Below are positions 16,917-37,394 of a stretch of 43,397 bases of DNA, one piece after another (position 1 is the stretch's first letter; every line of letters starts with the position of its first letter). Source of the DNA: a virus. Below the pieces are notes generated by a model, which saw only the letters and a list, made by a program, of their open reading frames with translations, searched no databases and was not told the DNA's origin. Where the stretch lies: positions 1 to 43,397 of the IMG/VR virus record IMGVR_UViG_3300030118_002379, one strand, 5' to 3'. Made by a program: the position numbers and the translations under genes.

Positions 16917-17239
16917 TGGCTAAGCCTACGGGTGGCTTGACCGCGTGGTTTGGTAAAGGGCCTAAAGGCGATTGGGTCGATATCGGTGCCCCAAAGAAAA
17001 AAGGTAAATATCAAGCTTGCGGTAGAAAGTCTGCTAAGAAAGGCAAAAGCAAACGTAAATATCCAAAATGTGTACCGAGATCAAAAGCTCGGAGTATGAC
17101 TGCAGCACAAAGACGAAGCGCAGTTAAAAGAAAAAGAGCAGCGGGTAATCCAGGCGGGAAGCCTCGTAACGTAAAAACTATAGTTAGGAAGAGAAAGCCT
17201 ACTACAAGAAGGAGGACTCGTGCCAAGAAAAAGAAGTAA
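16916..17239 (+). CDS. Basic protein with AWFGKG / Cys motif
   Basis: 107 residues, ATG at 16916. The N-terminus carries GGLTAWFGKGPKGDWVDIGA, then two Cys about 17 residues apart (YQACGRK ... YPKCVPRSKA) that could bind a metal, then TAAQRRSAVKRKRAAGNPGG and a 20-residue Arg/Lys tail. The AWFG(K)G and RRSAV(R/K)RKRAAGNPxGKP signatures are shared with small viral proteins I know only as uncharacterised. The likely role is DNA binding in the capsid or during packaging; that is inference. Followed by the next gene with a 20-base overlap. Confidence 0.78.
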   Translation: MAKPTGGLTAWFGKGPKGDWVDIGAPKKKGKYQACGRKSAKKGKSKRKYPKCVPRSKARSMTAAQRRSAVKRKRAAGNPGGKPRNVKTIVRKRKPTTRRRTRAKKKK

Positions 17240-19378: not shown

Positions 19379-21496
19379 ATGGCATACAGAAACAAAACTA
19401 AGAAAAAGTTAGATAAGGGAGAAGAACTTACACTAGCAAAAAATCAATTTAACGCTTACGTACGTGCGAGAGATAACGGCCATGATGAGTATATACAGAT
19501 GGCTAAAAAATGCGACATGTACTATCGCGGAGATCAATGGGATGAGTTCGATATGCAAGAACTCGATGATCAAGGCAGACCGGCTCTTACTATAAATACC
19601 ATCCTTCCTACAATCAATGCCGTGCTCGGGGAACAAAGCACGAAAAAAGCAGATATAACATTCAAGCCTAGGGGCGGTGGTAATCAAGAAGTAGCAGATG
19701 TCCTTACAAAAGTTTACCAACAGATAGCAGATAACAATAAGTTAGAGTGGATTGAGAACCAAGTGTTCTCTGATGGGTTGATTCAAGATCGAGGTTACTT
19801 CGATGTGCGGATAGATTTCTCTGATCATATACAAGGTGAAGTTAGAATCGAAGCGAAAGACCCACTTGATATTTTAATTGACCCAGACGCAAAACATTAC
19901 GACACAAGAACTTGGAACGAGATATTCGAAACCAAATGGATGAGTGTTGACGAGATAGAAGAAACTTACGGACAGGACAAAGCAGATAAATTAAGAATGT
20001 TAGCAGAGACAGGTACCACGTTGGGTGCTGACTCTATGGAGTTTGAAGAAGAAAGGTACGGAGATACCGACGAATATAACTACGGACAACAATACGCTGG
20101 GGATCCTGACAGTGCACGAATGCTCAGGTCAATAAGAGTTATAGAAAGACAGTATTACAAGCTCAAAGATTGTATGTATTACTTAGACCCAGTAACAGGT
20201 GACATGCGAGATGTGCCACAAAACTGGTCTAAAAAGAAAAGAGAAACCTTTGCTGATCAATACGGTTTAGACATTTTATCTAAAACAGTTAGGAAAGTAC
20301 GTTGGACTGTCACAGCTGATACAGTTGTATTGTTTGATGATTGGTCTCCATATAAACACTTTACAATCGTGCCTTATTTTCCATATTTTCGAAGAGGTAA
20401 GCCGTTCGGTATGGTCCGAAACTTATTGTCCCCGCAAGAACAGCTCAACAAGATTACTTCTCAAGAGCTGCATATAGTAAACACCACAGCAAATAGTGGA
20501 TGGATTGTAGAGAACGGCTCACTTTCGGGCATGACCGCGGATGACCTGGAAGAACACGGGGCAGAAACTGGGTTAGTATTAGAGTTTAATCGTGGTTCTA
20601 CGCCACCAGCAAAGATACCACCTAACCAAATACCTACAGGTTTAGACAGGCTAGGGCAAAAAGCCGCAGCGAACATCAAACAAATAAGTGGTATTACAGA
20701 CGCGATGTTAGGCCAAGACAGTGCTGAAGTATCAGGTGTAGCTATTCAAGCAAAACAAAACAGAGGATCTATGCTTTTGCAAGTACCTCTTACTAACTTA
20801 GCTAAGTCTAGACAGTATTTAGCAGAAGCTATTTTAGGATTAGTACAAGGATACTATACAGAAGAACGTGTTATACAAATTACTGATGAGTCTGATCCGT
20901 ACAAACCAAGAAGAGAATTAAGAGTAAATCAAATGACCCCAGAGGGACAAGTAATTAATGATTTACAATTAGGCGAGTATGATGTTGTAGTATCAAGTGC
21001 ACCTGCTAGAGATAACTTTGACGAGATGCAGTTTGCTGAAGCCATATCTTTACGTCAGGTTGGAGTACCAATACCGGATGACATGATTGTTGAGTACTCA
21101 CACTTATCACGTAAAGCAGATGTTGCTGATAGAATAAGAAAAATGCAAGGCACCGGACCTTTATCACCAGAACAAATACAGATGCAGAAGTTCCAAATGG
21201 AAGCGCAGATCAGAAGCACGCAGCTTGAGATTGCTAAACTAGAAGCAGAAGTAGCAAACATACAAACAATGGCAGCTGTGAATGTTGCTAAAGTAGATCA
21301 AATAGAAACTGAACCACAGTTGAAGATTGCAGAGTTACAGAGTAAACTGCAAACTAAACGTGAGGAACTCGATTTACGTGAGAGATTGTCAGCATTGACA
21401 AATGATATGCGTAAAGAACAGAGTGATACAGCGGCGGCATCCAAGATGGCAGTCGAAGCTCTTAGAAACTTAGACACAACAGGAGGTACTGAATAA
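19379..21496 (+). CDS. Portal protein, P22-like
   Basis: 705 residues, ATG at 19379. The N-terminal region has CDMYYRGDQWDEFDMQELDD, then RPALTINTILPTINAVLGEQ, and KDPLDILIDPDA further on, a pattern of P22-type podovirus portals. The central region carries PYFPYFRRGKPFGMVRNLLSP. The last 120 residues are a long alpha-helical coiled coil (QIRSTQLEIAKLEAEVANIQ), the barrel helix in this family. Twelve copies form the vertex channel through which TerL packages DNA and the tail attaches. It ends with TAATG overlap into the scaffold-like gene. Confidence 0.92.
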   Translation: MAYRNKTKKKLDKGEELTLAKNQFNAYVRARDNGHDEYIQMAKKCDMYYRGDQWDEFDMQELDDQGRPALTINTILPTINAVLGEQSTKKADITFKPRGGGNQEVADVLTKVYQQIADNNKLEWIENQVFSDGLIQDRGYFDVRIDFSDHIQGEVRIEAKDPLDILIDPDAKHYDTRTWNEIFETKWMSVDEIEETYGQDKADKLRMLAETGTTLGADSMEFEEERYGDTDEYNYGQQYAGDPDSARMLRSIRVIERQYYKLKDCMYYLDPVTGDMRDVPQNWSKKKRETFADQYGLDILSKTVRKVRWTVTADTVVLFDDWSPYKHFTIVPYFPYFRRGKPFGMVRNLLSPQEQLNKITSQELHIVNTTANSGWIVENGSLSGMTADDLEEHGAETGLVLEFNRGSTPPAKIPPNQIPTGLDRLGQKAAANIKQISGITDAMLGQDSAEVSGVAIQAKQNRGSMLLQVPLTNLAKSRQYLAEAILGLVQGYYTEERVIQITDESDPYKPRRELRVNQMTPEGQVINDLQLGEYDVVVSSAPARDNFDEMQFAEAISLRQVGVPIPDDMIVEYSHLSRKADVADRIRKMQGTGPLSPEQIQMQKFQMEAQIRSTQLEIAKLEAEVANIQTMAAVNVAKVDQIETEPQLKIAELQSKLQTKREELDLRERLSALTNDMRKEQSDTAAASKMAVEALRNLDTTGGTE

Positions 21497-22539
21497 TGGC
21501 TAAGAATCCCGAAACTGAAAACACTCAAGACGTCGTGCTTGACACGATGCCTGGAGCCGATCCAAAGACCGAAGAAGATACAAAAAGTTTTGAAGTTGAT
21601 TTAAACTTCGATGATCCGGTCGAGGAAGAAACAGAAGAAGAAACTGAAGAAGAAACTCAAGAGGAGGAAACCGATGAAGTCGAGGTTGAAGAGGAATCAC
21701 CTGAAGAGCCTGAAGAGGAAACAGAAGAGGAAGAAACTGAACCTGAGCCTGAAGTCGCAGAAGATACAGGAGAAGAAACAGTATTGGCAGACGATGAGGG
21801 AGATACACAACAACCTGAGAAGTCAGATGAGGGAGGACTTGCTCAAAAAGAACCGATGATTCCTAAATCTAGGTTTGATGAAGTTTTAGCCAAACAAAAA
21901 GCTCTTCAGAAAAAACTAGACGAAGCGCTAGCTCCTAAAGTAGAAGACGTAAAAGAGGCACCTGAGTTTGACTTTGATGCTAAAGAAAGCGAATACCAAA
22001 CTTTAGTTATGGAAGGCGAAAGCGAAAAAGCCACCCAACTTAGAAAAGAAATAAGAGAAGCAGAAAAACAACAAATGATGTTTGAGATGCAAACTAAGAT
22101 GGGGCAAACCGTTACTGAAAACCAAGAGATGGTAGATCTACAAACCAAAGCTGTACAACTCGAAGCTATGTACCCTATGTTAAATCAAGCAGATCCAAGC
22201 TTTGATCAAGATAAAACAAATGAAGTGCTAGAACTAAGAGATGCTTATATGACCCAAGGCTACTTAGGCGCAGACGCTTTACAAAAAGCTGTAGATTTAC
22301 TTATGGAGAAACCCGCTGTAGAAGAAGCTCCGAAGGTTGATCCTGTACAAAAAGAAATAGTTAAGAAGAAAAAGATTGCAAATACCAACAAAAAGATAGA
22401 GGCAGCGGAAAAACAACCGCCAGCTATGAAAGGTCAAAACAAAGCCGATAAGAAAGTTGATATCAATACTCTATCTAGTGAAGAATTTGCCGCATTGCCT
22501 GAAGAAACTTTAAAAAGAATGCGTGGTGATTTCGGATAA
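21496..22539 (+). CDS. Capsid scaffolding-like protein, very acidic
   Basis: 347 residues, ATG at 21496 behind GGAGG. Residues about 25-115 are an extreme Glu/Thr/Pro-rich low-complexity segment (EEETEEETEEETQEEETDEV and similar). This is followed by helical coiled-coil regions (SRFDEVLAKQKALQKKLDEA; EKATQLRKEIREAEKQQMMF), an Ala/Lys-rich linker, and a short C-terminal LSSEEFAALPEETLKRMRGD helix. The position between portal and capsid, the acidity and the helical content are the standard picture of a phage scaffolding protein. The repeated GAAGAAGAAAC codons make the DNA locally repetitive. Confidence 0.82.
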   Translation: MAKNPETENTQDVVLDTMPGADPKTEEDTKSFEVDLNFDDPVEEETEEETEEETQEEETDEVEVEEESPEEPEEETEEEETEPEPEVAEDTGEETVLADDEGDTQQPEKSDEGGLAQKEPMIPKSRFDEVLAKQKALQKKLDEALAPKVEDVKEAPEFDFDAKESEYQTLVMEGESEKATQLRKEIREAEKQQMMFEMQTKMGQTVTENQEMVDLQTKAVQLEAMYPMLNQADPSFDQDKTNEVLELRDAYMTQGYLGADALQKAVDLLMEKPAVEEAPKVDPVQKEIVKKKKIANTNKKIEAAEKQPPAMKGQNKADKKVDINTLSSEEFAALPEETLKRMRGDFG

Positions 22540-22540
22540 A

Positions 22541-22753
22541 GTGTGGTATAAATTAAACAAGTTCGCACGTAAGAGCGATATCTTACCGGGGTCGTGTCCG
22601 TAAAAAGCGTTTCTCGCCGGCACAGGGCGTAAAACTGGCCGGGTTCGTAACCCGTACCAAAACGAGAGCGTAACCCCAACGACAAAGGGTATACGGACAA
22701 ATAGTCGCTCCAATAAGTCGACTGGTTAATTAATTTTTAATGGAGACATTATT
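22541..22753 (+). other. Structured leader upstream of the major capsid gene
   Basis: This 213-base gap holds no gene. GTAAGA 22569-22574 pairs with TCTTAC 22581-22586. TGTCCGTA 22595-22602 pairs perfectly with TACGGACA 22692-22699. Inside the latter, TCTCG 22612-22616 pairs with CGAGA 22663-22667 and CGGGTT 22640-22645 with AACCCG 22649-22654 over a CGT loop. GGGGT 22588-22592 could also pair with ACCCC 22673-22677, which would be a pseudoknot. CGTAA occurs five times. A weak TATAAA at 22547 could be a -10 box. The GC content looks higher than in the flanking genes. The ribosome site TGGAGAC lies outside the fold at 22741. Confidence 0.6.
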
Positions 22754-23899
22754 ATGGCAAATACTAATTTTGCTTCTTTGACCAGTGAACAACTTACCAT
22801 CTGGTCTAGAGACTTCTGGCGTGTAGCTAGAAACATGTCCTTCATTAACCAATTCGCGGGTAGCGGATCTAACGCTATGGTTCAGAGAATATCTGAGCTT
22901 ACCCAATCAGAAAAGGGAGCAAGAGCTGTTTTAACACTTCTTGCCGACATGACTGGTGACGGTATTGTTGGAGACAACACTCTCGAAGGTAATGAAGAGG
23001 CGTTAAGAGCGTACGACATCGTCGTACAAATTGATCAATTGAGATTTGCAAACAGACTGTCTGGTAGACTGGCTGATCAAAAATCAGTTGTGAACTTCAG
23101 GGAACATTCAAGAGATGCTCTTGCTTATGCAATGGCTGACAGAATGGACCAATTAGCATTCCTTACTTTAAGTGGTATTGGATATAACCTTAAGAACAAT
23201 GGTGGTCTAAGAGCATCATTAACTTCAGGTCAAAACCTAAACGACTTAGAGTTTTCAAGTGATGTAACTGCTCCAACTTCTAATAGACATAGAAGATTTG
23301 ATGCTACAAACGGTATCGTTGCTGGTGATGTTACTGCAGTTGCTGCAGCTGACAAACTAAGCTATAGCGCTATCGTTGATCTAAAAGCTTATGCTAAAGA
23401 TCAGTACATCAGAGGACTAAGAGGTGCGGGTAATGATGAGATGTTCCATCTCTTCGTGACTCCACAAGTAATGGCTGACCTTAAACTTGATTCAGACTTC
23501 CTTGCTAACGTAAGACAAGCTGGTATCAGAGGACCTCAGTCAAGCTTGTTCTCAGGTTCTTCAAGTCTAATGGTTGATGGTGTGATGATTCATGAGTTCA
23601 GACACGTGTTTAACACAAGTGGTGCAACTTCTGGTTCATCTTCAAATGCTGGTTCATCTGGATACAAATGGGGCGCTAACGCTGATGTTAATGGTTCTGC
23701 ATGTTTATTCTGCGGTGCTCAAGCATTAGCTATGGCTGACATTGGTATCCCTGAAATAGTAGAAGACACATTCGACTATGGAAACCAAAACGGTATCTCA
23801 ATTGGTAAGATATTCGGTCTTAAGAAGCCTAAGTACAACTCAGATGTCACAGGACAGGATGAGGACTTTGGTGTTATTAGATTGGATGTAGCATACTAA
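22754..23899 (+). CDS. Major capsid protein, N4-gp56-like
   Basis: 381 residues, ATG at 22754. The pattern LTIWSRDFWRVARNMSFINQ near residue 13, ADMTGDGIVGDNTLEGNEEA near 74-93, and the central DRMDQLAFLTLSGI match the N4-gp56 family of major coat proteins (also called DUF4043/Phage_capsid_3), an HK97-fold protein. The C-terminal domain has RHVFNTSGATSGSSSNAGSS, a surface-loop-like region, and ends FGVIRLDVAY. It forms the capsid shell around the scaffold. The gene is bracketed by a structured leader and a strong hairpin downstream, so it is probably a separately controlled, highly expressed message. Confidence 0.93.
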   Translation: MANTNFASLTSEQLTIWSRDFWRVARNMSFINQFAGSGSNAMVQRISELTQSEKGARAVLTLLADMTGDGIVGDNTLEGNEEALRAYDIVVQIDQLRFANRLSGRLADQKSVVNFREHSRDALAYAMADRMDQLAFLTLSGIGYNLKNNGGLRASLTSGQNLNDLEFSSDVTAPTSNRHRRFDATNGIVAGDVTAVAAADKLSYSAIVDLKAYAKDQYIRGLRGAGNDEMFHLFVTPQVMADLKLDSDFLANVRQAGIRGPQSSLFSGSSSLMVDGVMIHEFRHVFNTSGATSGSSSNAGSSGYKWGANADVNGSACLFCGAQALAMADIGIPEIVEDTFDYGNQNGISIGKIFGLKKPKYNSDVTGQDEDFGVIRLDVAY

Positions 23900-23913
23900 T
23901 CGTGTTATTCTGT

Positions 23914-23940
23914 ATGGGTGGCTACTTAGTAGTCGCCCAT
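23914..23940 (+). terminator. Strong hairpin after the major capsid gene
   Basis: ATGGGTGGCTAC and GTAGTCGCCCAT can form twelve pairs (two G-U) around a three-base loop, 14 bases after the capsid stop. Only a weak TATTTA follows, so it may be a partial terminator or an mRNA 3'-end stabiliser that keeps capsid expression above that of the downstream connector genes. Confidence 0.65.
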
Positions 23941-23955
23941 ATTTAGGAGAAAATT

Positions 23956-29237: not shown

Positions 29238-32200
29238 GTGGCTATTACTACCGACTCAATCAATAAAATAAAAGAAGGCGATTTAGCAAGAAAAACTACT
29301 GATCGCACTGACTTTAGAAGTCCCCAACAGGGCATGCTTGCCCGACCAAGCGTAGAAAGAGTAGAGCCTATAGACACTTTAGGCGAAGCTTTTCGCGCAG
29401 GTGTAGCATCTGGTTACGATAATATTAGGGCTCAAAACCAAAACTTTTTAGCTGCTATAGATACACTTAGGGGAAGAGATGTATCTGCACGTAATAGATT
29501 GCGCGAAGCAGATTTTCTAGAAGACCAAGCTAGCATACCTCTGCAAGGGCTTGAGTCAGATTTTGCTAGTGCCTTAGAAGAGGGCAACGTGCATGATTTT
29601 TTTCTAAATACTGTTGCTGCCACGGGACAATTCATACCCTCACTGGCTGCGAGTTTAGCCGAAGCTGTTGCTGTGGGGGGTGTTGTGGCTGGTGGTACGA
29701 TATTAACCGGTGGTACAGCAACACCTGCACTATTAACCGCTGCAGCTGCTGGGACAGCCGCTCGAAGGAAAGCTGTAGAAGGTGGAGTAAAAGCCCTACA
29801 AACAACTCGAGCTGGGATCGACAAAGGCGAAGTAGAAGACCTCTTAAGTAGAGCATACAAAAATCAATTTAGAGTTAACAACAAACAAAAACCTTTGCAC
29901 AAGTTTTCGAAAAAAGAACTTGAAGACCTAGACACTATTTATGGTGTTATGCGTTCTAACCTACGTGGCAAAAGATTTACCCAAGGCGCAGTTCTAGGTG
30001 CGTTTACTCAAGAGCAACGTATGGGTACCGGTATAGCTTTTAGTGACTATGTCGACCAAGGGATGGATACTAAACAAGACGCTATTAATTCTATCCTACA
30101 AGGTACAGCTTTTGGTGCTGTTGGGGTTGGGGCTGAAGCGTTAACTGTTGCAGCTACTATAGGCAGATTAAAGAGACCGGGGCGAATAAAAAGAGGCACA
30201 AGCACAGATCCATTTAGATTTGATCCTATACCCCCAGGCAGTTTATTTAAGGATTTTGCTTCAATCAGTGCGGTTACTTCTGCTTCCGAGGGCCTTGCTG
30301 AACTCTTACAGGAAGAATTATCCATACAACAGAAGTTTAGGATAGACGACACTTACACGAAAGCGCAAGCAAAAATAGACAGAGTGAATGCTTTATTTGC
30401 TGGTCTTATGGGCGGGCTTGGTGTTGGTGGTGGTTTAGGTGCAGGTACTGCAGTTATAAATAAAGCTAGAAACCTTTCACAAAGAGGTGCCGCAGAACGC
30501 GAGATGATGCGTATATTTACCGAACGAGAGAACGCAGCGAAGATAGGCGCAGTTATGGGCGAACGTGCGGGGGCTTTAGAAACACAATTCGACTTCATGA
30601 GTAATGAAAACTCAGGAGTTAATAGTGTGTTTGTTCCCATAGAGTCAAAAGCAGAGTTTGCAAAGATACAAGAAAAAATAGAAGCGATGTTCGGTGACAA
30701 TGAGTTGTTTAGTGTTTCTACACCCACAGGGGTCTTTTTTACCACAAACCAACGCGCCGCTGGTAGGTTAGCAAACATCATGGACAGCCCGTATAAATAT
30801 GATACTGGAGTATTAGAAGGCTTTTTAGCAGAAAACTTAGGGTTTAGCAGGTCTAGAGATCCCAAAGATGACATCGTAGTTGGTCTTTTTGATAACGAAA
30901 AAGGTGAGTTTGTTAAGTATCAATCCGCTAGGGAAGATGTCAAAGGTGATGCAGAGGCTGCAGAAGCTGCCATGAACAACATAAGAGCAGCTATGGATCC
31001 GAAAAGATACACCATAGAAATACAAAGTTTGGCACAACATAGACGTTTTAGACAAGAAGGGTTACCTAAAGATGCTGATGTACTAAAAGCTACTAAAGAG
31101 GCTTTTGAAACCAGCGACATGTCTGAGATGGGGACTAGTGATGATGATACTGGCGTAGAAGGGGACAGAGGCCAAATAAACATAGACGTAACTGGAGCAA
31201 ACATTGATATAAGAAAAGGTAGAGTAACCCCTGCCCAAAGACAACAGTTTGATAGTTACCTTAAAAACGAATACAAACTGCCTATTGACTTCAGTGAACT
31301 TGTTTTCTTTTTACAACAAACACGCAAAATTTTACTTGCTCGACGTCAAGGCGCACAGCCTGCCGCTGAAGCCCAGGGGCAAACAAACCCTTCAATAATC
31401 GAACAATTACAAACTGAACTAGAACGCGCAAAACAAAGGCTTGAGCAATTAAATTCTGATGAAACTATTGAATCTTATCAACAAATAGAAGATGAACAGG
31501 GCGTAGAAGCAAGGAGAGATAAGGTAAATGAAGACGCAGCTTTTGAAAATGAACTGCAAGCAAGGATAAAAGGTTTAGAAAGCACAATAAGTTACTTAAC
31601 TAGAGGAGAAGGATCAACTCTTGTTTTTACTGAACAACAAGTGCAAGAATTAAAACAAGCTGACCTAGAAGTAGCTCGGCTCGAACGAAAAAATACTCCC
31701 GAACGTGCCGCTACATTAAGCGAGGCAGAGAAGAAAACAGCATCAGCTGAAGTAAAAGCTAAATTCGCTAGGCTAGATGCCGCAAGAAGACCCGGTGCAA
31801 AACCAGCAGCTGGAAAAAACGCCGAAGCAGTATTAAGTGAAATAGGCACACCCGACTCAAACGCAAGACGCAGGTACTCACGAATTTATGGCCAACTAAT
31901 AAATGCAGAAAAAAATGCTGGGCCTCTAAGAAAAGAAGATAGAGCTTTTTTACAAAGAATGACTTCAGGGGGTTTTCAAACTATAGCCCTGGAACTAGAC
32001 GGGGTGTTACAAGAAATAGCTGAACAAGGGGCTTTGTTGCAACAACCAGACTCTATCGAGAGTAGTATAGCTAGGGATGAGTTTGGTAGTAGAGAAGCTA
32101 CTAATATACCTTTAGTAGGAGTTAGTGAGGTTTTAAGTAGGACTAATGTAGTTTTAGATTTACAAAGACCAAACCCAAAAGACTTCAAAAGGGGTAGAAA

Positions 32201-35200
32201 AGATAAAGCCTATATAAAACAACTTGCTGATTTTAGAGCCGCACAAAGAGAAGCTAAAGCCCCAATAAAAGAAGCAGATCCAGTTGTTATGTCTAAATTT
32301 GGTTCTGGTACTGTACAAAACCCGTTTGTAGACCCTAAAAGATATAAACAAAAACCAAAACCCCTAACAGAAAAAGAAAAGAACAACAAAAAGAAAGTAA
32401 AAAAATACGAGGAAGACCTAAAAGAGCATAGACTAAGTGTAGGGTTTAAGATAGATGAAAGTGATGCTAAAGCAGACGGGCGTTCTATTGCTGGGTTGAA
32501 TACGTACATACATCCGACTTTGAAAGCAGAGTTTGAAAGTCAGAAACCTTTTTTATCTAAAAGGGCAGTACAAACTTTTAGAGACAAAGCCAAGATAGAA
32601 AGAGAAGAAACAGGCGGTATTGGGTTTTTAAGGTTTGTAGACGTAGCAGATTTGCGTGAGCTTAGAACAGCAACTGCTAATAACGAGACTTTTACAATTC
32701 CAGATAGAACAGTAGCTCCTGCAGCACCTAAAGTTATTTCTGGAGGACAAACTGGAGCAGATATTATTTTTGTTCAAGCGGCGAAAGAAGCAGGGTTGGA
32801 GACGGGTGGGTTAATGCCAAGGGGTTTTGTAACAGAAGATGGACGAAAGCCAGAATATGCACAAGAATTTAACATGGAAGAAGATCCAGATACTGGTAGA
32901 GGCAGAAATTTTTTCTTATCTAGAACTAAAAAGAATGTCGCGAACTCAGACGGAACTATTATTGTAGTAAATAACCCTGAAAATCTTACACCCGGTTCTA
33001 AACAAACTGTTAATTTTGCACGTGAATTAAATAAACCTTTTCTTGTTGTTGGTCCTGATGCAACGGTTGAAAGCATTCAACAGTTTATTACAGAAAATAA
33101 CATAAAAACATTAAATGGGGCGGGATCTAGAGGTAGTAAATTAAAAAACCAAGCTAAATTAAAAGCAACCCTAGTAGAATCTTTTAAAACACTTAAACAA
33201 GGACAGCCCACAAAGGCAACTAACAGGTTCGTTATTGTAAGGATGAAACCTGACCCAGAACAGTTTAGAGAGATTACTAGAGAAAATGTTGAGACTACTA
33301 GGAACATACGTGCGGATCTCCAGATACGATTAGACCAAGCGAACGCAAGAACCAAGTCTAGTAGTTATGACACACCAATCCACTTTAAATTACAGAATCT
33401 AAACCCCGAAGCCAAAAGTAAAAAACCAATAAATGTAGATATGGCGGTTTTACTAGAGGGTATCTCTAGTCTATCTAAGATAAAACAACGCAGACAGCCC
33501 GAAGAGTACACAAACCAAGCTGGGCAAAGAGTCGCAGCTCTGTTAGATGCAGTAGATATATTACAAGAAAATAATTTCCAACTTGAGTATTACCCACAAG
33601 GCGTAAAAGAAGAAGCAGTGTTCATCATGTCTGGGCCCAAAAAGAAAAGTGACATACAACTAGGAGCAGCTCTTGATGACATAATCTCTCGGCCGGAGGG
33701 ACCTGGAGCAGGTATTCTTAGAATAAAAATACCAGAGTACATTGAGGATTTTTCAGAAGCGGTTCAATATTTAAGAAAACAATTTGGGCTTCCAAGATTA
33801 GCTAGCGGTTTTTTTACAAACGATAGGTTTGCAAAAGTAAACGTGCCTTTAAAAGATTTGGTGTACGAAACAGAGGGTACCTCTTTAGTCGCTGGTATGA
33901 GCCCTTCACATATTTTGCCTTTGATACAAAATGTTGAAGCTAATACTATGCAGGAGATGACTTTACAAGAACTAGAAGATCTTGCGGCTAGGGCCGAAGA
34001 CGCTTTGAGTGTCAGGTATGCTGCAGTAGATAAAGATTCTAAAAAGACACCAGGCGAAGTTAAGGCATTTTATGGGACAGTCAAAGCTCAAGATAGAACT
34101 ATAATGCAGTTCCTAAGTGAAATAGGTAAAGTCATAGCTGCTATAAACAGTGCGGATATAAGGAATGAACCCGGTAAATTTGATCCGCAAGCAACTACAC
34201 AAGTAACTCGTGATGTGGTCGGTGTAGATAGAGACACAAACGAACAGGTAACTTACAGACAAGACGTTGATATTATCGACCCTCAATTTAAAGGAGTGGG
34301 TGGTGCAATTGATAGAAATGTACCGATAGAAACTTACTTAGATGACCTTCAAACAATTGCTATAGAAAGAGCTACACCTTCTATAGACGAGACTGGTATG
34401 TATAACTTAGATGACCCTAGTGGTGCTTCGATAGTTGATAATTCTAGTATTAAAATGGATATTCGAGATCGAGACTTGTTCGAGACTTATCAAGAACAAC
34501 AAGGCAAAGAGTTCAGGGGCAGAGATAGGTATGCAGATCTAGCAAGAACAAGTAATACAAAACCAAAATTTAAGGACAACACAAAATACCAAAAAGTTAC
34601 AGCAGTGTACTTAGGTAAAGTGATAGCAGAAAAAATTAATAAGTTAAAAGGTATAGATACCCCAGCACCTACGACAAGGACAAGAGCAAACCTACCTTTT
34701 AGAAAACAAATAATTACTAATATGATTGGAGCGGCTAGGAACTTAGGGCTCACAACAAACTTACACATTGTAGCGGCAGAAGAAGGGTACAGCGATTCAC
34801 AGTTACCTACAAGAATTAAAAACGTGATCGACCAAAAAAACTTTGACGATAAAAGACAAGATCTTTTAGAACGATCAGATAAAGTAGCTATGACTCTGCA
34901 GTACAGAGATTTTGATATTATCTTAATGAAAACAAATCCAGACATCTCTGAAGGGCAATACTACTCTGCATTCTTAAAAGAATTAGGTAACTCTTTGACT
35001 TTCCAAGAGCTAGAAAAGAGTTTAAAAGTGCCCGCTACTAGGAAAAAAATACTGCAAGCGTACGAAGAAATACTGAAAGGTGACAACGTGCCTCCTACCT
35101 ACACAAACGATGACACGGGCATAGAGAACTTTATGGCTGATCAGTTCGGTGTAGCTATAAGAAAAGAGTTAGGTATAGAAGTAGACGGCACAGTGTTTGA

Positions 35201-37394
35201 CAGTATGAACAAACCTGCTCAAGCTTGGTTCAAACGGTTAGCTAAATCACAAAAGAAAATGTATGACCAGTCTAAGATCTTTAGAAAGCGTACAGCAGTG
35301 GACGAAACCTTCCAAGAGTATGCGGCTGAATTACAAAAAACCCTTATAAACCCAGAAAACCAGAATGTTTCTTATAAAACAAAAGCAAGCATAGAAACTA
35401 TGATTGAAAGTGTCCTCGGGCCAGAAACGTTTACTGATAAGCAGTTGCGAAAAGCTATGGAGCAGACAAGTAAACTATTTAAGACTAAGAACTTGCCTAC
35501 TTGGCTTACCAAAATACTTCTTACTTCTGATACCAGGCTTAGAAACTACGGTCCAATAGGTGTAGCTATAGCTAACTTCTTTAATCTAGACCCTAGGTCT
35601 GTTTCTGAATCAGGCAGAGCGGGTATCTTTACGTTAAAAACTAGAAGAGCGAATGCTATGTTTAATGAGGTAGCAAAGATATTAGGGGTAGAAGATGGTT
35701 GGATTTACTCTACCTTAACTACAGAACAAAAACAGCAAATAGATTTAGCTGCTGATGATACTAAAGATACAGCTGATCTACCGCCACGAGCTAAAGCAAT
35801 AAGAGAGTATCTAGTTAACAACGTGTATAAAGACCTTGGATTAGATAGATATGGAGTAGACGAAAGACAAAACTTTTTCCCTCGTGTAATCGCGATTGCA
35901 GAAATAGCGGGCAATGAAAGTTTACAAATAGTCGCTAGGCAAGTATTAGCAGAAGCTAATCCTGGGGTATCAGAAAGTAGAATAGCTGATGCTGTAAGTG
36001 GTGTAGTCAAAAAAGGGTCAGGCGAATTAGATTTCGCAGCATCCGATGAAATAGATCTTGGTATGATGAAAGAAAGAAAAGAGCTATGGAACAAGGTTAC
36101 AAATAGAAGACTTATGGACGCGGGGCTTGCTTTACCCGCAGAAGTGGGTTTAAAACAGTACCTAGATAAAGTAGCCCTTAAATACGAATTTGAACAATCA
36201 GGTGGTGTAAAAGAACTAAACGGACTAATAGAACAACTTACCCCAGAACAACAAGAAGACGCTAGAAGGATCATTGATTCTATGTTTGGTAAAACTCCAC
36301 CCATAGATAAAGGCTGGTTAAAAGTAGCTAATAACGTGTTGCTCCCTGTAAACATCATAACTCTGCTAGCCTTTACTGTATTAGCTTCTTTGCAAGATAC
36401 AGCAGGGCCAGTACTAAGATCTAGGGGCACAGCTAAGATAAGTGACGTGGCTAATGTTATTAAAACTATGATAAAGAGCCCGCAAGAGGCTGCTGAGTTA
36501 GCACGAGAGGTTGGTGTTATCGGTGTAGATGCGATGTCCAGCTTCTTTATCTTTGCTGGAGAACAGAACTTTATGAACCAAACTTCAAAAAATGTATCAG
36601 ATGTTTGGTTTAGAGTTACATTATTAGAGGCATACACTAAGTTTACTAGGGTGTTTGCTACGGGCATGGGCACAAGATTTCTGCAGAATCACGCACGAAA
36701 AGCTCAGGAAGGAGACACTACATCTCAACTTTACTTAGATGAACTAAATATCACCGCAGATGAGGTGTTGACTTGGGAAGGCGGTAAGGCAGATGATGCT
36801 ACACGTACAAAGGTCAATGAAGCGTTGGCTCAGTTTGTAGATGAATCTATTGTAAGACCTAACCCAGCACAAAGACCTACTTATGCTAATGATCCTAGGT
36901 ATGCTCTTATATGGCAGTTAAAATCATTCTTCTATGCTTACGGTAAAACAATCGTGTTCCCAACATTGAAAGAGTCACATAGAGGGTTTGTAAACCAAGG
37001 CGTAGGCGCTGGTGTGATGCCATTGTTGCTTATGGCTGGGATCTTACTGCCTATAACTATGTTAGGTTTAGAAATAAGAGAATTGACTAAGTATTTACTA
37101 GCAGAGTTGTTGCCAGGTATTGATGGCGACGACCCAGGAGTAAACTACTTTAAGAGCAACAGCATGAGTACAGGACAGTATATAACTGAGATCATAGACC
37201 GAAGTGGTATGCTAGGCCCAGCGAGTTTAGCCCTGCCTATATTCTTAGAGAGTCATAGGTATGGCAAACCATTCTGGGTACCGCCCTTGGGGCCAGCTGC
37301 AGAAAGGGTGTATGATGGCATAACTTGGGACTGGCGTGTAGCAGATTACTTGCCTGTTTATGGTCAGCTAGACACTAGAAATTTTGGAAGGTAA
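29238..37394 (+). CDS. Giant internal virion protein with embedded YpsA-like domain
   Basis: 2718 residues from GTG at 29238, the largest gene here. Segments: small hydrophobic patches at about 128-175 and 388-410; a long coiled coil near 715-800 (IIEQLQTELERAKQRLEQLN); a compact Rossmann-like insert at about 1160-1305 (KVISGGQTGAD, GLMPRGF, NSDGTIIVVN, LNKPFLVVG); then mainly helical sequence with hydrophobic segments near 2366-2386 and 2590-2615. The C-terminus (LIWQLKSFFYAYGKTIVFPT) resembles the end domains of large polyvalent phage proteins. It probably enters the host with the DNA, like T7 gp16. I found no RNA-polymerase, lytic transglycosylase or peptidase signature by eye, though such domains could be missed. 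Confidence 0.85.
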   Translation: MAITTDSINKIKEGDLARKTTDRTDFRSPQQGMLARPSVERVEPIDTLGEAFRAGVASGYDNIRAQNQNFLAAIDTLRGRDVSARNRLREADFLEDQASIPLQGLESDFASALEEGNVHDFFLNTVAATGQFIPSLAASLAEAVAVGGVVAGGTILTGGTATPALLTAAAAGTAARRKAVEGGVKALQTTRAGIDKGEVEDLLSRAYKNQFRVNNKQKPLHKFSKKELEDLDTIYGVMRSNLRGKRFTQGAVLGAFTQEQRMGTGIAFSDYVDQGMDTKQDAINSILQGTAFGAVGVGAEALTVAATIGRLKRPGRIKRGTSTDPFRFDPIPPGSLFKDFASISAVTSASEGLAELLQEELSIQQKFRIDDTYTKAQAKIDRVNALFAGLMGGLGVGGGLGAGTAVINKARNLSQRGAAEREMMRIFTERENAAKIGAVMGERAGALETQFDFMSNENSGVNSVFVPIESKAEFAKIQEKIEAMFGDNELFSVSTPTGVFFTTNQRAAGRLANIMDSPYKYDTGVLEGFLAENLGFSRSRDPKDDIVVGLFDNEKGEFVKYQSAREDVKGDAEAAEAAMNNIRAAMDPKRYTIEIQSLAQHRRFRQEGLPKDADVLKATKEAFETSDMSEMGTSDDDTGVEGDRGQINIDVTGANIDIRKGRVTPAQRQQFDSYLKNEYKLPIDFSELVFFLQQTRKILLARRQGAQPAAEAQGQTNPSIIEQLQTELERAKQRLEQLNSDETIESYQQIEDEQGVEARRDKVNEDAAFENELQARIKGLESTISYLTRGEGSTLVFTEQQVQELKQADLEVARLERKNTPERAATLSEAEKKTASAEVKAKFARLDAARRPGAKPAAGKNAEAVLSEIGTPDSNARRRYSRIYGQLINAEKNAGPLRKEDRAFLQRMTSGGFQTIALELDGVLQEIAEQGALLQQPDSIESSIARDEFGSREATNIPLVGVSEVLSRTNVVLDLQRPNPKDFKRGRKDKAYIKQLADFRAAQREAKAPIKEADPVVMSKFGSGTVQNPFVDPKRYKQKPKPLTEKEKNNKKKVKKYEEDLKEHRLSVGFKIDESDAKADGRSIAGLNTYIHPTLKAEFESQKPFLSKRAVQTFRDKAKIEREETGGIGFLRFVDVADLRELRTATANNETFTIPDRTVAPAAPKVISGGQTGADIIFVQAAKEAGLETGGLMPRGFVTEDGRKPEYAQEFNMEEDPDTGRGRNFFLSRTKKNVANSDGTIIVVNNPENLTPGSKQTVNFARELNKPFLVVGPDATVESIQQFITENNIKTLNGAGSRGSKLKNQAKLKATLVESFKTLKQGQPTKATNRFVIVRMKPDPEQFREITRENVETTRNIRADLQIRLDQANARTKSSSYDTPIHFKLQNLNPEAKSKKPINVDMAVLLEGISSLSKIKQRRQPEEYTNQAGQRVAALLDAVDILQENNFQLEYYPQGVKEEAVFIMSGPKKKSDIQLGAALDDIISRPEGPGAGILRIKIPEYIEDFSEAVQYLRKQFGLPRLASGFFTNDRFAKVNVPLKDLVYETEGTSLVAGMSPSHILPLIQNVEANTMQEMTLQELEDLAARAEDALSVRYAAVDKDSKKTPGEVKAFYGTVKAQDRTIMQFLSEIGKVIAAINSADIRNEPGKFDPQATTQVTRDVVGVDRDTNEQVTYRQDVDIIDPQFKGVGGAIDRNVPIETYLDDLQTIAIERATPSIDETGMYNLDDPSGASIVDNSSIKMDIRDRDLFETYQEQQGKEFRGRDRYADLARTSNTKPKFKDNTKYQKVTAVYLGKVIAEKINKLKGIDTPAPTTRTRANLPFRKQIITNMIGAARNLGLTTNLHIVAAEEGYSDSQLPTRIKNVIDQKNFDDKRQDLLERSDKVAMTLQYRDFDIILMKTNPDISEGQYYSAFLKELGNSLTFQELEKSLKVPATRKKILQAYEEILKGDNVPPTYTNDDTGIENFMADQFGVAIRKELGIEVDGTVFDSMNKPAQAWFKRLAKSQKKMYDQSKIFRKRTAVDETFQEYAAELQKTLINPENQNVSYKTKASIETMIESVLGPETFTDKQLRKAMEQTSKLFKTKNLPTWLTKILLTSDTRLRNYGPIGVAIANFFNLDPRSVSESGRAGIFTLKTRRANAMFNEVAKILGVEDGWIYSTLTTEQKQQIDLAADDTKDTADLPPRAKAIREYLVNNVYKDLGLDRYGVDERQNFFPRVIAIAEIAGNESLQIVARQVLAEANPGVSESRIADAVSGVVKKGSGELDFAASDEIDLGMMKERKELWNKVTNRRLMDAGLALPAEVGLKQYLDKVALKYEFEQSGGVKELNGLIEQLTPEQQEDARRIIDSMFGKTPPIDKGWLKVANNVLLPVNIITLLAFTVLASLQDTAGPVLRSRGTAKISDVANVIKTMIKSPQEAAELAREVGVIGVDAMSSFFIFAGEQNFMNQTSKNVSDVWFRVTLLEAYTKFTRVFATGMGTRFLQNHARKAQEGDTTSQLYLDELNITADEVLTWEGGKADDATRTKVNEALAQFVDESIVRPNPAQRPTYANDPRYALIWQLKSFFYAYGKTIVFPTLKESHRGFVNQGVGAGVMPLLLMAGILLPITMLGLEIRELTKYLLAELLPGIDGDDPGVNYFKSNSMSTGQYITEIIDRSGMLGPASLALPIFLESHRYGKPFWVPPLGPAAERVYDGITWDWRVADYLPVYGQLDTRNFGR
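32715..33145 (+). other. YpsA-like / putative molybdenum-carrier-type domain (within the giant gene)
   Basis: Residues 1160-1305 of the 2718-residue protein. ISGGQTGADIIFVQAAKEAG, GLMPRGF, then NVANSDGTIIVVN and PFLVVG follow the order seen in circularly permuted YpsA-family proteins annotated as putative molybdenum carrier (PF12694), a Rossmann-like nucleotide-binding fold. The first motif is the GGQTGAD phosphate loop. Such stand-alone proteins are about 150 residues, so the whole domain seems present. Their true ligand is not established. Confidence 0.8.

What the first reader, a model, noticed from the sequence alone, without database searches (positions are those of the whole stretch)
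22541..22753. Folded leader, possibly with pseudoknot, before the capsid gene
An 8-bp perfect closing stem, two perfect 6-bp hairpins, an inner helix, a possible pseudoknot and five CGTAA motifs sit in a capsid 5' leader. The region looks more GC-rich than its flanks. Capsid genes need high, timed expression, so this may be a cis-regulatory RNA, an mRNA stabiliser or a ribozyme-like processing element.
Basis: partly seen in the sequence, partly recalled or inferred. Interest (0 to 1): 0.75.

Follow-up and report, generated by a model that had tools for sequence, protein, structure and literature searches.

The report
Tandem-pseudoknot leader of phage capsid mRNA
The mRNA for this phage's major capsid protein appears to begin with a roughly 160-nucleotide chain of up to six small RNA knots, kept in hundreds of mostly marine viral contigs and rebuilt with different sequences in other phage lineages, which points to an undescribed RNA device that probably protects or tunes the most heavily used viral message.

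Summary
The gap 22540-22753 before the capsid gene (MCP, 22754-23899) holds a conserved structured RNA at 22563-22723: a tandem row of up to six H-type pseudoknots starting a few nucleotides after a predicted promoter -10 box. Every strong covariance-model match among 100 loci lies just upstream of an MCP gene, and all 33 contigs found with an MCP-blind DNA pattern do too. Across 56 relatives (leaders down to about 53% identity) 94% of 46 proposed pairs are kept, covariation 0.431 against 0.169±0.006 shuffled. Mutual information with no structure assumed recovers PK1, PK3, PK4, PK6 and hairpin stems; PK5 is invariant, PK2 weak. Capsid leaders of Burkholderiales prophages and phage AP1 carry a different three-pseudoknot row, with covariation in two of three. 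No Rfam family matches and no paper found describes it. Best explanation (mechanism inferred): a multi-pseudoknot 5' end that stabilises capsid mRNA and insulates its translation. Rivals: a protein-binding autoregulatory operator, or a put/EAR-like antiterminator. Structure is near certain; function is open.

The parts
22544..22552 (+). Predicted extended -10 promoter element (TGG TATAAA); predicted RNA start about 22558-22560
   Evidence: In 50 of 55 relatives the best -10 box ends 6-14 nt before the first paired base of PK1, unlike shuffled upstream sequence. No good -35 in the window itself. Transcription start not measured.
22563..22723 (+). Whole tandem-pseudoknot array
   Evidence: Covariance model R1 hit 22560-22725, 158.7 bits, only strong site in the window; 46 pairs, 93.9% kept, covariation 0.431 vs 0.169 shuffled
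22563..22586 (+). PK1: hairpin 22569-22574/22581-22586; its loop 22575-22578 pairs with 22563-22566
   Evidence: Covarying (UA/CG/GU at one pair), 97.7% paired; permutation z 7.0
22587..22609 (+). PK2: hairpin 22587-22590/22597-22600; loop 22593-22595 may pair with 22607-22609
   Evidence: Hairpin covaries strongly. Loop pairing weak: 62% paired, permutation z 0.5
22615..22640 (+). PK3: hairpin 22615-22618/22626-22629; loop 22620-22624 pairs with 22636-22639
   Evidence: All four loop pairs show double changes; permutation z 9.6
22640..22664 (+). PK4: hairpin 22640-22643/22651-22654; loop 22646-22648 pairs with 22662-22664
   Evidence: Double changes at two of three loop pairs; permutation z 8.4
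22669..22689 (+). PK5: hairpin 22675-22677/22687-22689; loop 22679-22681 can pair with 22669-22671
   Evidence: Hairpin covaries. Loop pairs all but invariant (100% paired), so neither supported nor contradicted by covariation
22695..22723 (+). PK6: hairpin 22703-22707/22719-22723; loop 22709-22711 pairs with 22695-22697
   Evidence: Hairpin covaries at all five pairs; one loop pair with many double changes; permutation z 5.1
22724..22753 (+). AU-rich spacer with Shine-Dalgarno GGAG 22742-22745
   Evidence: Read from sequence; last 47 nt before ATG 64% AT in relatives; accessibility of the SD not remarkable
22754..23899 (+). Major capsid protein gene, 381 aa
   Evidence: PHROG 334 major head protein, E 2.5e-79; 54% identical to KPP25 protein
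23912..23942 (+). 14-bp hairpin 12 nt after the MCP stop, possible terminator or 3' stabiliser
   Evidence: Strong hairpins with changing sequence at the same place in most relatives

Best explanation
SHOWN by comparison: the capsid leader encodes a + strand RNA domain of about 160 nt made of a tandem row of compact H-type pseudoknots; four of six are supported by covariation here, and two of three in an independent lineage. SUPPORTED: the transcript starts within a few nucleotides of the first pseudoknot. INFERRED mechanism: the row is a stable 5' end for the most heavily used phage mRNA. Stacked pseudoknots leave almost no single-stranded 5' end for RNase E/RppH (or a 5'-3' exonuclease such as RNase J) to enter, and keep the leader from pairing with the AU-rich ribosome-binding region, so that the message, which ends in a conserved hairpin after the stop codon, stays long-lived and translatable late in infection.
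For: Structure. Strict tie to MCP. -10 box 6-14 nt before PK1 in 50 of 55 leaders, so the array is at or next to the RNA's 5' end. Hairpin after MCP in most relatives. Different lineages keep three or six units with unrelated loop sequence, which fits a role of architecture rather than of a specific sequence. Established knowledge: 5'-terminal structure slows RNase E-dependent decay; T4 gene 32 mRNA with a leader pseudoknot is the most stable T4 mRNA (PMC3014915).
Against: No transcript, decay or probing data. A single 5' hairpin is usually enough to slow decay, so six knots need another reason. In the marine group some loop letters (ACGAUA, GUCGU) are nearly invariant, which hints at recognition by something. 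The ribosome site is not predicted to be unusually open. In T4 gene 32 the pseudoknot is mainly a protein-binding site.
Confidence: 0.5

Rival explanations
1. Autoregulatory operator: capsid (or scaffold) protein, or another phage protein, binds the pseudoknot row when in excess and blocks translation, as T4 gp32 does at its own leader pseudoknot.
For: Same layout as T4 gene 32: pseudoknot, then AU-rich stretch with the ribosome site (PMC3014915). Near-invariant loop letters in the marine group. Always in front of the same gene.
Against: Loop sequences change freely in the prophage lineage while pairing is kept; no second copy of the element elsewhere in the loci; no known RNA-binding activity of this capsid family.
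Confidence: 0.25
2. Processive antiterminator: the nascent row modifies RNA polymerase, like HK022 put RNA or the epsC/EAR element, so that it reads through terminators into the downstream late genes.
For: Position at the very start of a transcript that precedes about 19 kb of co-directional genes, with a terminator-like hairpin right after MCP.
Against: No structural match to those elements in Rfam; the hairpin after MCP would be expected to end the capsid transcript; downstream transcription is unknown.
Confidence: 0.1
3. A trans-acting or structural RNA (small RNA, packaging RNA or virion component) that happens to sit before the capsid gene.
For: Stable, highly structured domain of about 160 nt with its own predicted promoter.
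Against: No terminator between array and gene in the window; Shine-Dalgarno and start follow closely in all relatives; never found away from MCP; terminase is not of the phi29 type (phrog_38).
Confidence: 0.08
4. Ligand-sensing riboswitch or ribozyme.
For: Compact pseudoknots are used by several riboswitch and ribozyme classes.
Against: No match to any of 4227 Rfam families, even at E 10 in the window or at E 0.5 in relatives; modular repetition with freely varying loops is unlike an aptamer or an active site; no metabolic gene context.
Confidence: 0.05
5. No functional RNA: chance folding in a GC-richer intergenic stretch.
For: Nested MFE is only z -1.78; other windows of the genome score as high on single-sequence pseudoknot potential.
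Against: 395 double-changed cells against 102±14 in shuffles and no slid version comes close; mutual information with no structure assumed finds most of the same helices; an independent lineage also covaries.
Confidence: 0.01

Closest known systems
STAXI motif (RF01728)
   Same: Published as a pseudoknot repeated two or usually three times in tandem, found in bacterial and phage-related DNA (PMC2864571)
   Different: Up to six units, no UUCG-capped repeat unit, always before a capsid gene; STAXI lies near DNA-handling genes; the STAXI model does not match the window even at E 10 nor relatives at E 0.5.
T4/T2 gene 32 mRNA leader pseudoknot
   Same: H-type pseudoknot in the 5' leader of an abundant phage mRNA, followed by an AU-rich stretch with the ribosome site; very stable mRNA (PMC3014915)
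   Different: One pseudoknot against up to six; different gene (single-strand binding protein); repression by the gene product is proven there and untested here.
Tandem pseudoknots of tmRNA and of plant and animal RNA viruses (for example tobamovirus 3' region, foot-and-mouth disease virus 5' region)
   Same: Rows of consecutive H-type pseudoknots in one RNA (general knowledge; variable number in tmRNA, PMC1168896 abstract)
   Different: Those are in a stable RNA or in RNA virus genomes, not in a DNA phage mRNA leader; no tmRNA found by ARAGORN in the window.
HK022 put RNA and the epsC/EAR element
   Same: Structured RNA at the start of a long operon transcript; the epsC motif has a pseudoknot (PMC2864571; the rest general knowledge)
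   Different: Different structure and gene context; no Rfam match; antitermination untested here.
manA and wcaG marine phage RNA motifs
   Same: Structured 5' leader RNAs in marine phage sequences (PMC2864571)
   Different: Linked to metabolic genes in T4-like cyanophages; no Rfam match here.

Membership tests
Any Rfam 15 family | Score above the family's gathering cut-off | tested here: not met
   No match in the window; only one chance hit at E 9.3 elsewhere when relaxed to E 10; relatives likewise
STAXI | Match to RF01728 | tested here: not met
STAXI | Pseudoknot unit repeated in tandem | tested here: met
STAXI | Near ssDNA-binding, integrase, topoisomerase or antirestriction genes | tested here: not met
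   Always before the major capsid gene
T4 gene 32-type autoregulatory leader | Leader pseudoknot followed by AU-rich stretch covering the ribosome site | tested here: met
T4 gene 32-type autoregulatory leader | Gene product binds the pseudoknot and represses translation | not testable with these tools
   Needs binding and repression assays
H-type pseudoknot | Hairpin loop paired with a flanking strand, both helices supported | tested here: met
   PK1, PK3, PK4, PK6; PK2 and PK5 inconclusive
put/EAR-type antiterminator | Read-through of terminators dependent on the RNA | not testable with these tools
   Needs a reporter assay
5' mRNA stabiliser | Structure within a few nucleotides of the RNA 5' end | tested here: inconclusive
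   Predicted from -10 box position in 50 of 55 leaders; start site not mapped

The most novel reading that the evidence does not exclude
A new class of phage RNA device: modular rows of pseudoknots that act as a mechanical 5' cap or nuclease shield on capsid mRNAs of dsDNA phages. Selection would be on the knotted architecture rather than on sequence, so that different lineages keep three to six units of unrelated sequence.
Probability: 0.35. Interest if true: 0.85.

Novelty: new variant of a known kind. Interest (0 to 1): 0.74.

Why it matters
Capsid protein is the main product of a phage infection, and how phages set and sustain its mRNA is poorly understood outside a few model phages. A covariation-supported row of up to six pseudoknots at the start of that mRNA, present in hundreds of mostly marine viral contigs and remade in other lineages, would be a new RNA family and, to my knowledge, the longest pseudoknot row known in a bacterial or phage mRNA leader. 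It makes the question of what pseudoknots do for mRNA life in bacteria directly testable, since a three-unit version occurs in the isolated phage AP1 and in prophages of cultured Comamonadaceae.

Tried and rejected
Ribozyme, riboswitch or tmRNA: no Rfam or ARAGORN match. MFE folding as evidence: weak. Single-sequence pseudoknot scoring as genome-wide evidence: not unique. Nucleotide search of annotated phages for the leader: only chance hits. KPP25, BcepIL02 and phiA008 leaders scored by the dynamic program: KPP25 and BcepIL02 not clearly above shuffles, phiA008 modest. PK5 and PK2 as proven pseudoknots: not supported by permutation. PK-C of the prophage lineage: not significant. Shine-Dalgarno accessibility as a distinguishing feature: not remarkable. 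CsrA-type binding via ANGGA at PK6: considered, but GGA alternates with GGG in relatives. Literature: searches for tandem pseudoknots in phage capsid leaders found nothing; the library is open access only, and one likely relevant survey of structured RNAs was not held.

Full report
What the window is. The window is a 43.4-kb virus record from a KPP25-like podovirus: terminase (phrog_38), portal (phrog_156), an unassigned gene at 21496-22539 in the scaffold position, and the major capsid protein MCP at 22754-23899 (phrog_334). The MCP is 54% identical to the KPP25 protein. The leader is the 214-nt gap 22540-22753.

Checking the observation. The five CGTAA motifs, the two 6-bp hairpins, the 8-bp pairing and the higher GC all exist. 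Ordinary folding is only slightly better than shuffles (z -1.78). The 8-bp closing stem fails in relatives: 60% of cells paired, covariation score within the range of slid controls, and it overlaps the covarying hairpin P2.

Relatives. Leaders of the 80 kept loci are plainly homologous and structured. Two wider scans and one of cellular genomes extended the set; 159 of 203 distinct leaders match one profile.

The structure. Mutual information computed with no structural assumption on 130 leaders (effective number 28) puts loop pairs of PK1, PK3, PK4 and PK6 and stem pairs of P2 to P6 among the top covarying columns. A covariance model was built from 29 leaders using only the six nested hairpins, and relatives were aligned with it, so without reference to the pseudoknots. 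Counting all 46 pairs on 56 sequences gives 93.9% paired, 33 pairs with double changes, and covariation 0.431 against 0.169±0.006 shuffled and at most 0.092 slid. For the 20 pseudoknot pairs alone it is 89.2% paired and 0.275 against 0.121±0.008. A per-sequence permutation test of loop-partner complementarity on 55 leaders below 90% identity supports PK1 (z 7.0), PK3 (9.6), PK4 (8.4) and PK6 (5.1). PK2 (0.5) and the invariant PK5 are not supported by it. G-U exceeds A-C (63 to 19) in these helices, favouring + strand RNA.

Uniqueness and position. Each strong match of the model lies just upstream of MCP, one per locus, and in the window only at 22560-22725 with 158.7 bits; the next window hit, 16978-17035, has 9.4 bits and E 0.97. 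An MCP-blind DNA pattern found 33 contigs. All 33 carry an MCP start shortly downstream: 28 by a strict peptide pattern and five with diverged MCPs read from the translation.

Ends of the transcript. In 50 of 55 leaders the best -10 box ends 6-14 nt before the first paired base of PK1; shuffled upstream sequence shows no such peak. The predicted RNA start is thus at most a few nucleotides from the array. The window itself has only an extended -10 (TGGTATAAA, 22544-22552) and no good -35. After MCP a strong hairpin recurs with changing sequence in most relatives (14 bp at 23912-23942 in the window).

A second lineage. Capsid leaders of Burkholderiales prophages and Acidovorax phage AP1 do not match the first profile but show three pseudoknots in a row. 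In 37 non-redundant leaders of this lineage (most), PK-A and PK-B covary in both stem (z 6.0 and 5.6) and loop (z 6.9 and 6.0). PK-B loop/partner pairs run UGAC/GUCA, UGGC/GCCA, CGGC/GCCG, UGAU/AUCA, UGUC/GACA and UCGA/UCGA. PK-C is not significant. A third group (L189-like) shows similar units by eye and by dynamic programming in some members (L189 z 4.4), but covariation was not tested there.

How it probably works. Shown: the knotted domain and its strict tie to the capsid gene. Inferred: function. A row of stacked pseudoknots at the 5' end is best explained as a device that keeps the capsid mRNA intact and its ribosome site free. The T4 gene 32 mRNA, with one leader pseudoknot, is described as the most stable T4 mRNA, but there the pseudoknot is a protein-binding site (PMC3014915), so the operator model is the main rival. 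Antitermination is third.

Relation to what is known. No Rfam family matches. STAXI is the closest published tandem pseudoknot in this kind of DNA, but it differs in gene context and unit number and its model does not match. Searches of the open-access library found no report of such leaders; subscription papers could not be searched.

Limits. There are no transcript data; transcription start, decay and binding are predictions. The permutation controls do not fully correct for shared ancestry, although sequences were thinned to below 90% identity and slid controls keep relatedness. PK2 and PK5 rest on single examples or on invariant letters. The host is unknown.

Noticed in passing
23912-23942 and the same place in relatives: A strong hairpin (9-16 bp in many relatives, different sequences) 7-18 nt after the capsid stop codon, sometimes followed by a T run: a conserved terminator or 3' stabiliser of the capsid mRNA.
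   Followed up: partly
L177, L182, L199 and similar loci, between array and start codon: A sub-group of relatives has an extra strong hairpin between the last pseudoknot and the Shine-Dalgarno sequence; the window lacks it.
   Followed up: no
L085:2649-2971 (Manatee Spring podovirus ctwe8250): A group I intron (Rfam RF00028, 67 bits) sits right before or within the 5' part of the capsid gene, with an endonuclease-like ORF upstream.
   Followed up: partly
L088:2709-2903 (Burkholderia phage BcepIL02): A gene annotated as CsrA-like regulator lies directly upstream of the capsid gene.
   Followed up: no
L086 about 2905-2935 (Paracoccus phage KLEP18-1) and L282 (Ruegeria contig): Single units of the form UUCG-stem-loop-stem-GUUAA-loop complement, resembling PK3, before distant capsid genes.
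   Followed up: partly
L440s-L470s leaders, for example L446, L456, L470: Other capsid leaders in the wider family hold hairpins with ACGAUA-type loops preceded by UCGU, like PK1; possible further arrays.
   Followed up: no
29238-37394: A single 2718-aa ORF on the + strand in the late region; not examined.
   Followed up: no
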